Below, piece by piece: positions 8-4,514 of a DNA stretch of 7,581 bases (position 1 is the stretch's first letter; every line of letters starts with the position of its first letter). Made by a program: the position numbers and the translations under genes. This DNA is from JBHIBR01 sp046759145 [NCBI: Nitrospinota bacterium] (GTDB lineage: Bacteria; UBA8248), in NCBI GenBank assembly GCA_046759145.1, contig JBHIBR010000081.1, forward strand, positions 1 to 7,581, in the 5' to 3' direction. The notes below the pieces were generated by a model, which was given only the letters and a program-made list of their open reading frames with translations, made no database searches and was not told where the DNA came from.

Positions 8-94
8 TGGTGCCCAAGGCCGGACTCGAACCGACACGGGGTTGCCCCCACCAGCCCCTCAAGCTGGCGTGTCTACCAGTTCCACCACTTGGGC
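8..94 (-). tRNA. tRNA-Leu, anticodon GAG
   Basis: Class II tRNA of 87 nt including an encoded CCA end (positions 10-8). The acceptor stem GCCCAAG (94-88) pairs perfectly with CTTGGGC (18-12), with discriminator A at 11. The anticodon stem CCAGC/GCTGG encloses the loop TTGAGGG, which gives anticodon GAG and decodes the leucine codons CUC and CUU. The long variable arm GGGG-CAA-CCCC is typical of leucine tRNAs. The T arm is GTCGG, loop TTCGAGT, CCGGC, with one G-U pair. The same isoacceptor lies directly after secG in E. coli (leuU); here three importer genes separate them. Only 7 nt follow before the window edge, so no terminator can be assessed. Confidence 0.97.
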
Positions 95-144: not shown

Positions 145-161
145 GCGGGCCCTAGGCCCGC
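145..161 (-). other. Perfect GC hairpin enclosing the permease stop codon
   Basis: GCGGGCC and GGCCCGC form a perfect 7-bp inverted repeat with a 3-nt loop. On the minus strand the loop is the TAG stop codon of the DppC-type permease. No run of T follows, so it is not a canonical intrinsic terminator. It could slow or end transcription of the upstream operon, protect the 3' end of the mRNA, or be chance in GC-rich DNA. The -35 box of the tRNA promoter starts directly beside it. Confidence 0.4.
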
Positions 162-1471
162 AACCTCGGGTTCAGGGCGTCCCGCAAGCCTTCCCCAAAG
201 AGGTTGAACGCCAGGACGACGATGAGGATGGCCGTGCCGGGGATGAAGGTCAGCCAAGGGGCGTCGAAAATGTATTTCTTGCCGCCGGAGAGAATGTTCC
301 CCCAGGTGGCCTGGGGCGGCGGGACGCCAAAGCCGAGAAAGCTGAGCGCGGCCTCGACAAGGATGGCAGTGGCGATGCCGATTGTGGCCGAGACGAGCAC
401 CGGGGCGAGGGAATTCGGCACGAGGTGACGGAAGATAAGGCGGAAGTCGTTCATCCCCAGGGCCACCGCCGCCTCGATGAAGGGCCGCTCCCGCAGGGAA
501 AGGATCTCGGCCCGCACGAAGCGTGCGGGGCCCACCCAGCCCGTCACGCCGATGACGATCATGATGTTCCATATGCTGGGAGGGAGCAAAGCGATGACGG
601 TCAGGATCAGGAAGAAGGTGGGGAAGGAGAGCTGGACGTCTACCAGTGCGATGAACATCGTGTCCACCCGGGGAAGATGAGACCTCCGCAAGGCGCCGCG
701 GAAGTCGGAGGCGTAGGCGGCCGCTCCCAGTGCCGCCGCCGCGCCCAGGGTGATGGTCCAGCGAGCGACGGCGGTGGGGGAGAAGAAGAGGAGCGCGATG
801 TGGGCGATCACCCCGCCGATGAAGGCGGCGAGCAAGACCGAAGCGCCTTTCTCTTTCTCCGCCCGGCCCCCGAGGATTCCTCCCAGGACGGGGAAGCCCA
901 CCATGGCAAGCAACGCCCATAGAGACTGCAGGAGGAATCCCGTCGGAAGCCATCCGAAGCTGCGCCAGATGGCGATGCCGGTTGCAAGAGCCGCGAGCGC
1001 ACCCAGCACAGGGGCGGCGCCCGGCTGGCGCTCCCCGTAGAAGCCGGCGGTTCCTCCCATCACCACCCCGAGGACGACGGCGATGCCCACCGCCACGAAG
1101 CCCACCGCCATGGAGACCGTCGCTCCCTCGAGCATGCGCGCGAACACGTCACGGCCCAGCTCGTCCGTCCCGAAGAGGTATCGCCCCAGCCGCGGGAGGG
1201 CTTCGGCAGGCACCAGCTCGCGGTCCGGGTTCGGGCGGGAGAACGGGGGCTTCAGCCTGTCGGGGAGCCGCACCTGGCTCGAGTTGAAGTAAGGCTCTGG
1301 CCCCGACGTCCCCCGCCAGCCCACGATTGCGATGAGGACGAACAGGACGAGCATGGCACCCCCGGCCATCGCCAGGCGGTTCGAGACGAGGTTCTGCCAG
1401 ACGCGCTGCCAGGGGGTGAGTTCGTCGCCGAGGGTCTCTTCGGTTTCCATCGGGCGCACCGCTTGGGTCAT
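152..1471 (-). CDS. ABC importer permease, DppC/OppC type, with an extra four-helix insertion
   Basis: Inner-membrane permease, the second half of the same importer channel. It has 439 residues where DppC-like proteins usually have about 280-300. The family parts are clear: N-terminal cytoplasmic segment WQRVWQNLVSNRLAM, helix 1 (about 36-51), periplasmic loop, LFGTDELGRDVFARML (99-114), helix 2 ending GTAGFYGE (about 140-147), then VDTMFIALVDVQLSFPTFFL (269-288), the coupling loop EAAVALGMNDFRLIFRHLVP (333-352) and EAALSFLGFGVPPPQATWGN (373-392). Between GFYGE and VDTMF, which are nearly adjacent in ordinary members, about 118 residues (149-266) are inserted. They hold four hydrophobic segments near 152-168, 178-200, 210-230 and 238-254. 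The ATG overlaps the DppB-type stop by four bases. No ATPase gene follows; the next gene is a tRNA. Confidence 0.93.
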   Translation of the reverse strand: MTQAVRPMETEETLGDELTPWQRVWQNLVSNRLAMAGGAMLVLFVLIAIVGWRGTSGPEPYFNSSQVRLPDRLKPPFSRPNPDRELVPAEALPRLGRYLFGTDELGRDVFARMLEGATVSMAVGFVAVGIAVVLGVVMGGTAGFYGERQPGAAPVLGALAALATGIAIWRSFGWLPTGFLLQSLWALLAMVGFPVLGGILGGRAEKEKGASVLLAAFIGGVIAHIALLFFSPTAVARWTITLGAAAALGAAAYASDFRGALRRSHLPRVDTMFIALVDVQLSFPTFFLILTVIALLPPSIWNIMIVIGVTGWVGPARFVRAEILSLRERPFIEAAVALGMNDFRLIFRHLVPNSLAPVLVSATIGIATAILVEAALSFLGFGVPPPQATWGNILSGGKKYIFDAPWLTFIPGTAILIVVLAFNLFGEGLRDALNPRLRA

Positions 1472-2431: not shown

Positions 2432-4507
2432 CTAGCTCTCGAACACCGGGGCTATGGGGAGCTTGACCCACATGCGGAAGTCGTAAGAGTAGTTCCCCGT
2501 CCGGGTGGGGGTGATCTTCTTGTGGCGGATTCCCCCCCCGGGAAGCCTCTCTCGGATGACGATTTTGCGGTCGAGCAGGGCCGTCCATTTCGTGACGTAG
2601 AGAAAGGTGTAGGGCTGGTCCGCGTAGATGATCCGGTGGAGCTGGTGCGCGTAAGCCACCTGCCTCTTCAAATCGTATTCCTGCCGGATCTTTACGATGA
2701 GGCGGTCCGCCTCGGGGTTCTTGTAACCGACGAAGTTGAGTTGACCCGGATTGGTCTGGCTCGAGTGCCAGATCTGGTAGAGGTCGGGGTCGAGCCCCAA
2801 CCGCCAGCCGAGGATGACGGCGTCGAAGTTCAGGGCGTTGATGTATTTCTTGAGGAAGACGGCCCACTCGACGGTGTCGATCCGCACGCGGACGCCGATG
2901 CGCTTCCAGGCGTCCTGGACGACGATGGCGATGGCCTTGCGTATATCGTTTCCGTGATTGGTGATGAGGGTGAATTCTAAAGGCTTCCCATCCTTCACCA
3001 TCCTGCCGTTCACCTTGCGCCAGCCCGCCTCGCGGAGGAGCCGCTCCGCCCCTTTCCGGTCGTATGGAAAGGGGCGAACGGCACGGTTGTAATAGTCGCT
3101 CTGTTTTACGAAGGGCCCGGTGATGTCCTCAGCCTGGTTATAGAAGAGATACTTGTGGATCTTCCGCGTGTCGATCGCCATGCTGAGAGCCCGCCGCACT
3201 CGAACGTCGTCGAAGGGTTTGCGGCGCATGTTGTAGCCGATGTAGGTAAAGCCGAAGGAAAGGCCCGAGAAGACCTGGAAACGTGTGTCCTTGCGCAGGC
3301 GGTCGACCTGGTGGGGTTCCGCCCCGTAGCTGTCCTCCGTCCCTGCGTAGAAGGCCATCTCCTGGGTCAGGACGTCGGGGATAATGCGGTAGATGTACTC
3401 CTCGTACTCGGGAGCGCCTTCCCAGTAGTCCTCGTTGCGGACGAGGCGGATCAGCTCGTCCGAGCGCCACTCCTTGAAGCGGAACATGCCCGTGCCAATG
3501 GGGTGCCGGTTGAATTCGCTGTCCCGAAGCGTGAATTTCGCAGGGTCCTTCCCGCGGCGGCGGGCCTCGGCCTCCAGCGCCTCCCGATTGAGGAGGTGCT
3601 CGGGCAGGATGCCCATGCCCCAGGTTCCGAAGGCGGGCGAGTGGAGGCGCTTGTAGACCACCCTGACGGTGTACCGATCCGGCGTCTCGACCCGCTGGAC
3701 GGGCTCGTAGTCGGGGATGCGCGGCGAGAGGTTGCGCGAGTCCATGATGGCCTCGTATGTGAACCGCACGTCGCCCGAGTCGAACTCGTGGCCGTCGTGG
3801 AAGCGCACCCCGCGGCGCAGGTGGAAGACGATGATGGGGTTGTGCTCGGTCAGCTTCACCCTCCCGAGGGCCGCCCGCCGGATCGGCCCCTCGAGGTTCT
3901 CCTTGAGGAAGGGGGCGGCGTCGCGGGCGATGGCCTCCGGCCCCAGGAGCGCTGCAAGCTCTTCAAACAAATCCTGGTCGACCTTCTTCAGGGTGAGCTT
4001 CACCCGGGCCGGGTAAGCGATCGTAACGGCCGCACGTCCCGGCTGCTTTTTTCCCTTCCGCGGGGGGGTAGGGACGGAGGTCTTTTCCTCCGCAGGTGGG
4101 ACGATCTCCACCCTCTCAATGTTGGCCACCCACTTGGGCCGGCCCACAGCCCGCCCACGCTCTATCCGCTGGCGGAGGTCTTCGGCGGAAGGCCCGCCGG
4201 GGCGGGGGACGAAGTATGCCTCTTCATAGATGCGCCAGGAGGTGGCCAGGCGCCCGCGGAATTTGAGGTCCTTGTCGCGGTCGATGAGCCCGTCGAAGAC
4301 CAGGTCCACGATGGTGCCGCTCGAGACGTCGGCGTGCAGGATGGGGTTGAGGATCTGGGCGTCTCCGATGGAGCCCTGGATGTATTGGCGCAGGCGCCGG
4401 TCGCTCCCCTTGGTCTGGTCGCTGAAGGTGGGGACCCAGAGGTAGGACTGAAGCAGGAGGACGGTGATGAAGAGGGGAACGAGAAGGAGAAGTCGCTTGA
4501 TGAGCAT
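2432..4507 (-). CDS. ABC importer substrate-binding protein, family 5 (peptide/nickel type), with an internal insertion
   Basis: Extracytoplasmic binding protein that should deliver peptides or another small ligand to the two permeases encoded next. It is 691 residues from the ATG at 4507 (family usually 500-600). SBP_bac_5 hallmarks are DAQILNPILHADVSSGTIVD (about 50-69), VFHLRRGVRFHDGHEFDSGD (227-246), GTGMFRFKEW, IGYNMRRKPFDDVRVRRALS (423-442), a lobe-II run VQDAWKRIGVRVRIDTVEWA, and DLYQIWHSSQTNP near the C-terminus. An N-terminal hydrophobic stretch (about 5-22) should act as a signal peptide or membrane anchor. It contains no lipobox cysteine, and the protein has no cysteine at all. About 125 residues (near 96-223) interrupt lobe I between SWRIYEEA and the VFHLRRG strand. 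GTG at 4510 is an alternative start, but AGGAGG lies 7 nt before the ATG. The ligand cannot be named from sequence. Confidence 0.9.
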   Translation of the reverse strand: MLIKRLLLLVPLFITVLLLQSYLWVPTFSDQTKGSDRRLRQYIQGSIGDAQILNPILHADVSSGTIVDLVFDGLIDRDKDLKFRGRLATSWRIYEEAYFVPRPGGPSAEDLRQRIERGRAVGRPKWVANIERVEIVPPAEEKTSVPTPPRKGKKQPGRAAVTIAYPARVKLTLKKVDQDLFEELAALLGPEAIARDAAPFLKENLEGPIRRAALGRVKLTEHNPIIVFHLRRGVRFHDGHEFDSGDVRFTYEAIMDSRNLSPRIPDYEPVQRVETPDRYTVRVVYKRLHSPAFGTWGMGILPEHLLNREALEAEARRRGKDPAKFTLRDSEFNRHPIGTGMFRFKEWRSDELIRLVRNEDYWEGAPEYEEYIYRIIPDVLTQEMAFYAGTEDSYGAEPHQVDRLRKDTRFQVFSGLSFGFTYIGYNMRRKPFDDVRVRRALSMAIDTRKIHKYLFYNQAEDITGPFVKQSDYYNRAVRPFPYDRKGAERLLREAGWRKVNGRMVKDGKPLEFTLITNHGNDIRKAIAIVVQDAWKRIGVRVRIDTVEWAVFLKKYINALNFDAVILGWRLGLDPDLYQIWHSSQTNPGQLNFVGYKNPEADRLIVKIRQEYDLKRQVAYAHQLHRIIYADQPYTFLYVTKWTALLDRKIVIRERLPGGGIRHKKITPTRTGNYSYDFRMWVKLPIAPVFES

Positions 4508-4514
4508 CACCGGG

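What the first reader, a model, noticed from the sequence alone, without database searches (positions are those of the whole stretch)
673..1027. Four extra transmembrane helices inserted in a DppC-type permease
Seen: the 439-residue permease has about 118 residues between GFYGE (helix 2 end) and VDTMFIALVDVQLSFP (helix 3), which are nearly contiguous in ordinary DppC/OppC proteins. The insert has four hydrophobic stretches. Its internal connector GGRAEKEKG and its exit SDFRGALRRSHLPR are rich in positive charge, while the other two connectors are nearly uncharged. With both ends on the cytoplasmic side, this fits the positive-inside rule and an even helix number, so the core topology is kept. 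Inference: a real membrane module was added to the permease, perhaps for extra lipid or partner contacts, a regulatory role, or an altered substrate path. It is in frame, with no sign of decay.
Basis: partly seen in the sequence, partly recalled or inferred. Interest (0 to 1): 0.72.

Follow-up and report, generated by a model that had tools for sequence, protein, structure and literature searches.

The report
Extra membrane helices in a permease
One lineage of uncultured bacteria has added a variable set of extra membrane-spanning helices, probably two, four or six, into one peptide-type import protein at a spot where its relatives have only a short turn; this is a real but modest new variant whose purpose is untested.

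Summary
The 439-residue OppC/DppC-type permease (152-1471, minus strand) has 122 residues (147-268, window 668-1033) between TM2 and TM3, where E. coli DppC has 2. No Pfam, NCBIfam, PHROGs or PDB sequence search gave a significant match. All 14 of 14 readable orthologues in one 18-genome phylum-level group carry an insert of 65-183 aa, whereas 29 of 29 best matches read in a second group of 77 genomes and 40 of 40 paralogues read in four insert-bearing genomes do not. Insert carriers form one clade (ultrafast bootstrap 100). The 122-183 aa inserts are homologous; the window's lacks helices b and c of the long type, L008's lacks e and f. The 65-aa type sits at the same place but its homology is weakly supported. 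AlphaFold2 gives four helices in the window insert at low confidence (pLDDT 49-74) on an intact DppC core. The insert is under purifying selection weaker than the core's. Best reading: a single-origin, lipid-facing accessory module outside the pore; its role is inferred, not shown.

The parts
152..1471 (-). OppC/DppC-type ABC permease with inserted membrane module, 439 aa
   Evidence: Pfam PF12911 residues 19-76 and PF00528 residues 263-438; fold match to 8z1w_B, 281 residues, 2.2 A
668..1033 (-). the insert, residues 147-268 (122 aa), in the TM2-TM3 turn (cytoplasmic side inferred)
   Evidence: alignment to DppC 8z1v and to 80 related loci; coordinates computed
959..1018 (-). insert helix a (residues 152-171)
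   Evidence: AlphaFold2 secondary structure; hydropathy peak
854..943 (-). insert helix equivalent to d of the long type (residues 177-206)
   Evidence: alignment to long inserts
782..844 (-). insert helix equivalent to e (residues 210-230)
710..772 (-). insert helix equivalent to f (residues 234-254)
   Evidence: weakest hydropathy (1.31)
683..703 (-). short exit helix (residues 257-263) before TM3
   Evidence: the LP that follows is invariant in the ten aligned inserts of 122-183 aa
1468..2427 (-). partner permease of DppB type, 319 aa; its end overlaps the start of the DppC-type gene
2432..4510 (-). family 5 substrate-binding protein, 692 aa, with N-terminal hydrophobic stretch
   Evidence: PF00496
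4590..4907 (-). secG
   Evidence: open frame, conserved position; the name is recalled, no family search was run on it
8..94 (-). tRNA-Leu (gag) downstream of the permease gene

Best explanation
The permease is the DppC-side membrane subunit of a binding-protein-dependent (type I) ABC importer encoded with its partner DppB and a family 5 binding protein that looks membrane-anchored. In the ancestor of one lineage a membrane segment, most likely of six helices, was inserted into the short cytoplasmic turn between TM2 and TM3. Because both ends of the turn face the cytoplasm, only inserts with an even helix number keep the core upright, and the forms now seen fit 6, 4 and 2 helices, reached by loss of helix pairs in at least two, probably three, lineages. 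The module follows TM2, outside the TM3-TM6 bundle that forms the substrate path, so it most likely sits in the lipid at the edge of the transporter and works as a packing or lateral docking element, leaving the transport cycle as in ordinary DppBC. Shown: the insert, its homology among the 122-183 aa forms, clade restriction, core fold and motifs, purifying selection. Inferred: membrane topology, ancestral six helices, position in the complex, function.
For: Insert site and size. Insert carriers split from ten insert-free homologues (L010-L019) with ultrafast bootstrap 100 in trees of SBP+DppB+DppC core and of DppC core alone. Same gene order as the window in L001-L008 and, from tpi onward, L009. 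Insert present in 14 of 14 genomes with a match at E<=1e-65 among 18 in the group. Homology of the window insert to L098, L099, L009, L002 and L008 inserts: shuffle Z 12.4, 11.0, 13.6, 6.6, 4.2. Window lacks b and c, L008 lacks e and f. Helices: four in the window model, six in the L005 model (low confidence). K+R count 7-10 in presumed cytoplasmic versus 0-4 in presumed outer connectors in each of 10 inserts. dN/dS of the insert below 1 in 23 of 23 pairs. Core superposes on 8z1w_B. TM3-TM6 form the path (PMC12136057, passages).
Against: AlphaFold2 confidence in the insert is low (49-74 in the window, 31-48 through most of the L005 insert). At a hydropathy cut-off of 1.2 the long inserts show 6, 5 or 4 peaks, because some helices, a and f above all, are only weakly hydrophobic, so six helices rest on L009, homology and a weak model. 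The 65-aa inserts are not clearly homologous to the rest (L001 shuffle Z -0.3 to 2.3 against five others; hhalign probability 28.8, E 6e-4, over helix a alone), so they might be a separate insertion. Some nodes inside the clade are weak (52 and 81; 35 and 77 in the core-only tree). dN/dS is higher in the insert than in the core in 23 of 23 pairs, which fits a loosely constrained or dispensable element. The d/e connector, cytoplasmic in this topology, has net charge -3 in L002-L006. No partner was identified.
Confidence: 0.55

Rival explanations
1. The insert is a nearly neutral, lipid-exposed addition: once gained it is tolerated as long as it keeps an even helix number and hydrophobicity, and it does nothing specific. 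Loss of helix pairs is its slow erosion.
For: Higher dN/dS than the core in 23 of 23 pairs, up to 0.47 within groups; length varies from 65 to 183 aa; only seven invariant columns, Gly and Trp in helix a, Gly in helix d and the exit LP, across ten inserts.
Against: Present in 14 of 14 readable orthologues in the group; dN/dS still below 1 in 23 of 23 pairs.
Confidence: 0.25
2. The module is a specific docking or regulatory site, for example for a shared ATPase pair, for the N-terminal anchor of the binding protein, or for another membrane protein.
For: A motif scan (Walker A plus signature) found no ABC ATPase frame in L001-L009, while the insert-free L018 and L019 have one directly after dppC. 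Downstream reach is about 7 kb only in L001, L002, L003, L005 and L008, and 0.2-2.5 kb in L004, L006, L007 and L009; the window itself ends 151 bases after the gene. Each of 6 genomes has 2 to 8 oligo_HPY matches elsewhere. The binding protein has an N-terminal hydrophobic stretch.
Against: The anchor is present in insert-free orthologues too (L015-L019, L025), and insert-free L016 also shows no ATPase frame within about 7 kb downstream, so neither trait tracks the insert. The coupling (EAA) loop looks ordinary.
Confidence: 0.13
3. The insert changes the substrate path, for instance giving lateral access from the membrane for hydrophobic peptides.
For: It is probably membrane-embedded and part of the permease; nothing more specific.
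Against: It follows TM2, which is not among the helices named as forming the path in DppBCDF; the core is superposable.
Confidence: 0.04
4. The insert is an assembly, frameshift or translation artefact or a decayed gene.
For: The window's exact four-helix form is seen in this record only; G015, whose DppB is 86% identical, has its contig end about 39 residues into DppC.
Against: In frame, homologous to inserts in separate genome assemblies, purifying selection, GC3 0.82 in the insert versus 0.89 in the core.
Confidence: 0.03

Closest known systems
DppC/OppC permeases of peptide ABC importers (E. coli DppBCDF, PDB 8z1v/8z1w; M. tuberculosis DppABCD and OppABCD)
   Same: Same core fold (281 residues aligned, 2.2 A to 8z1w_B), OppC_N and BPD_transp_1 domains, encoded next to a DppB-type subunit and a family 5 binding protein.
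   Different: 122 extra residues with four predicted helices in the TM2-TM3 turn, which is 2 residues in E. coli DppC and 1-2 in 40 of 40 paralogues read.
Helices HA and HB of prokaryotic proton-coupled oligopeptide transporters (POT family)
   Same: A peripheral transmembrane hairpin added between parts of a transporter core; [quoted passage not shown]
   Different: An unrelated transporter superfamily (MFS); one hairpin rather than a variable set.
MalF of the maltose importer, with extra N-terminal helices (recalled, not tested)
   Same: A type I importer permease with more helices than the common core.
   Different: Its extra helices are at the N-terminus, not in this turn (recalled).

Membership tests
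OppC/DppC-type permease (Pfam OppC_N + BPD_transp_1) | both Pfam domains above the gathering score | tested here: met
   PF00528 91.9 bits (cut-off 26.4), PF12911 41.1 bits (cut-off 23.9)
OppC/DppC-type permease (Pfam OppC_N + BPD_transp_1) | six-helix core fold of DppC | tested here: met
   Z 28.1, 2.2 A, 281 aligned, target length 282, 8z1w_B
OppC/DppC-type permease (Pfam OppC_N + BPD_transp_1) | EAA coupling loop with conserved G between TM4 and TM5 | tested here: met
   IEAAVALG read; R320, G339, P352 and N353 invariant in alignment A1 of 46 sequences
OppC/DppC-type permease (Pfam OppC_N + BPD_transp_1) | paired DppB subunit and binding protein encoded beside it | tested here: met
OppC/DppC-type permease (Pfam OppC_N + BPD_transp_1) | OppD/OppF-type ATPases that power it | tested here: inconclusive
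   no ATPase frame found in L001-L009 (motif scan; downstream reach 0.2 to 7 kb); 2 to 8 oligo_HPY matches elsewhere in each of 6 genomes; which one serves it is unknown
Named NCBIfam equivalogs (Opp4C, Opp2C, NikC, DppC, GsiD and others) | score above the curated cut-off | tested here: not met
   best 250.6 bits for Opp4C against a cut-off of 350; none of the 21 families listed for this protein reached its cut-off, so it is filed under none of them and no substrate is assigned
POT family (HA/HB hairpin) | major facilitator fold | tested here: not met
   Pfam finds only BPD_transp_1 and OppC_N in the whole protein at E<=1; likeness is of layout only

The most novel reading that the evidence does not exclude
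A clade-specific membrane module of two to six helices, grafted once into the TM2-TM3 turn of one peptide-type importer, serves as a docking platform through which a transporter without an ATPase gene beside it recruits or is controlled by shared partners, and its helix pairs are gained or lost as units.
Probability: 0.12. Interest if true: 0.65.

Novelty: new variant of a known kind. Interest (0 to 1): 0.42.

Why it matters
The TM2-TM3 turn was only 1-2 residues long in all 40 paralogues read here, yet in one clade it holds up to 183 residues. Forms consistent with two, four and six helices in one conserved locus make a natural series for testing how membrane proteins gain and lose helices in pairs without turning the core upside down. 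It also shows where a type I importer tolerates extra helices, and resembles the unexplained HA/HB hairpin of POT transporters. If it proves to be only passive packing, it matters as a curiosity of membrane protein evolution.

Tried and rejected
Insert as a known domain: no family reached significance; the lowest E-values were 0.033 (Pfam DUF6056, window), 0.044 (Pfam MFS_1, L001) and 0.013 (NCBIfam GldE, L008), all below the curated cut-off scores, and 0.42-0.49 in PHROGs; no PDB sequence at E<=1 with the profile. Insert alone against genome contigs: no relative. Insert profile in other phylum-level groups: 0 of 77 (where the tool warns that an empty answer without a positive control shows nothing) and 1 of 95 with a partial match at E 8.3e-4 in a frame with one stop, taken as chance (I looked only at the first 300 bases of that locus). 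The same profile rang in 9 of 18 genomes of the insert group, each once and at the permease gene; it missed the 5 genomes with the 65-aa form, so it could also miss short or diverged stand-alone relatives.

Origin by hairpin duplication: shuffle tests between hairpins gave Z from -1.3 to 2.0 in 8 inserts, no support. Origin from DppC, DppB, SecG or the SBP anchor: Z up to 3.2 in single cases out of 30 comparisons, not consistent between homologues, rejected. Second helix of the 65-aa type as helix d: suggestive for one pair (L007 with the window, Z 4.1) but not for most, so left open.

Wider control: of 60 plasmid-borne relatives listed at even steps out of 2916 records, 58 span the turn and none is longer there than the query (differences -35 to -2 codons). 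This set is biased to plasmids of Klebsiella and rhizobia, and an insert carrier could show up as a shortened match.

Papers: searches listed 1, 0, 1 and 1 papers, none with a title on extra helices in OppC/DppC; I opened none of these three. They cover open-access full texts and exact phrases only, so this does not show that nothing is in print. Passages were seen of PMC12136057 and PMC4527243; the other papers listed were seen as listings only.

Full report
What is there. The window holds, on the minus strand, gap (partial), pgk, tpi, secG, a family 5 binding protein, a DppB-type permease, a DppC-type permease and a tRNA-Leu (gap, pgk, tpi and secG are names recalled from the sequences, no family search was run on them). 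The DppC-type permease is 439 aa. OppC_N matches residues 19-76 and BPD_transp_1 residues 263-438. Against E. coli DppC the alignment breaks after residue 146 and resumes at 269, while the chain goes from 127 to 130. So 122 residues sit where DppC has two.

Is the insert a membrane segment? Hydropathy gives four peaks. AlphaFold2, with an alignment of 46 sequences from the window and the search for related loci, gives helices 152-171, 177-206, 210-230 and 234-254 plus a short helix 257-263, with block pLDDT 49-74 there and a mean of 79.9 overall. The model's core fits DppC 8z1w_B over 281 residues at 2.2 A. In each of ten inserts the presumed inner connectors hold more Lys+Arg (7-10) than the outer ones (0-4); acidic residues partly offset this, and the d/e connector is net negative in L002-L006.

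Who has it? The window's own genome is not held. A scan of genome contigs with the whole permease kept the best 80 of 380 confirmed loci. Of these 80, 9 (L001-L009) have 65 to 183 residues at the site and 71 have 2 to 13. In L001-L008 the order gap-pgk-tpi-secG-SBP-DppB-DppC is that of the window; L009 is cut at tpi and its DppC gene is split between two frames upstream of the insert. Insert-free orthologues backed by gene order are L016 (whole order), L017 (from tpi) and L018 and L019 (from secG), with spacers of 13, 13, 2 and 2. The phylum-level group of L002 holds 18 genomes; 14 have a match at E<=1e-65 and all 14 carry an insert. Of the other four, G015 has a DppB 86% identical to the window's but its contig ends about 39 residues into DppC, and G017-G019 have no DppB match at 1e-50. 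In the separate group of G010, 77 genomes, 59 have a match at E<=1e-62; in the 29 new loci read the spacer is 8 (23 loci), 9 (1), 13 (4) or 29 (1, L127), never like the insert. The other matches of that group were not read, and gene order was not tested for these 29. Among the loci, L004-L009 and L010-L015 bear the label Nitrospinota, Nitrospinae or Nitrospinaceae, while L001-L003 are labelled only bacterium. Of 42 paralogue places in G001, G002, G008 and G009 at E<=1e-30, I read 40 and all 40 have a spacer of 1 or 2 residues.

History. Trees of SBP+DppB+DppC core and of DppC core alone both split all insert carriers from the ten insert-free homologues L010-L019 with ultrafast bootstrap 100 (SBP was missing for L010-L014). 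Inserts come as 173-183 aa (L002-L006, L009, L098, L099), 133 (L008), 122 (window) and 65 (L001, L007, L100-L102). Those of 122 aa and more are homologous by shuffle tests (window to L098 Z 12.4, L009 to L002 Z 33.6, L008 to L002 Z 8.1). Named a to f in the long form, the window lacks b and c, L008 lacks e and f. Since b-c and e-f each occur on both sides of the deepest split in the clade, the long form is most simply ancestral, with pairs lost later. The 65-aa form aligns by profile only in helix a (probability 28.8, E 6e-4), so it may be a strongly reduced form or a second insertion. Weak nodes inside the clade (52 and 81; 35 and 77 in the core-only tree) limit the count of losses.

Caveats on helix number. 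With a plain hydropathy cut-off the long inserts show 6 (L009), 5 (L098, L004) or 4 (L002, L003, L005, L006, L099) peaks; the six-helix reading rests on L009, homology and the low-confidence L005 model (helices 151-171, 173-188, 196-211, 235-264, 268-290, 295-314). An even number is required by the cytoplasmic position of both ends, which itself is inferred from the DppC topology (periplasmic TM1-TM2 and TM3-TM4 regions, coupling helix between TM4 and TM5 in the cytoplasm; PMC12136057, passages).

Selection. In 23 of 23 pairs examined, dN/dS of the insert is below 1 and above that of the core: 0.19-0.31 versus 0.07-0.15 among L002-L006, 0.17-0.44 versus 0.10-0.21 in the 65-aa group, 0.47 versus 0.18 for L098/L099, and 0.56-0.62 versus 0.18-0.21 for the window with L098/L099, where synonymous change in the insert is near saturation. 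The module is kept as protein but loosely constrained.

Function. The insert follows TM2, and in DppBCDF the path is formed by TM3-TM6, so an altered path is unlikely. No ATPase frame was found in the loci of L001-L009 (motif scan; reach about 7 kb downstream in five of the nine and 0.2-2.5 kb in four), although OppD/F-type matches exist elsewhere in 6 of 6 genomes searched. The binding protein looks membrane-anchored. Both traits also occur in insert-free orthologues (L016 for the first, L015-L019 and L025 for the second), so neither explains the insert. I therefore favour a peripheral packing or docking element, with a near-neutral addition as the main rival. The closest parallel in layout is the HA/HB hairpin of prokaryotic POT transporters, whose function is also called unclear (PMC4527243, passages).

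Verdict. A real, clade-specific variant of a well-known permease family; no known domain was found to match the insert. It is a new variant of a known kind, of moderate interest because of its series of lengths and not because of any shown function.

Noticed in passing
window 2432-4510 (-): The binding protein has an N-terminal hydrophobic stretch followed by a conserved QSYFWVP-like motif, and about 120-150 residues between LATSW and the FHLRRGV stretch, where L034, L035, L021 and L030 have 7; both features occur in L001, L002, L007-L009, L098, L099, L015-L019 and L025.
   Followed up: partly
L001-L009, L018, L019: No ATPase frame was found beside the importer genes in L001-L009 (downstream reach 0.2 to 7 kb), whereas L018 and L019 have one right after dppC.
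   Followed up: partly
L009 3975-5571: The dppC gene is split between two frames upstream of the insert, a sequencing error or a frameshift.
   Followed up: no
L127: A 29-residue spacer at the same site in one match of the second genome group, rich in charged residues, apparently a separate small insertion.
   Followed up: no
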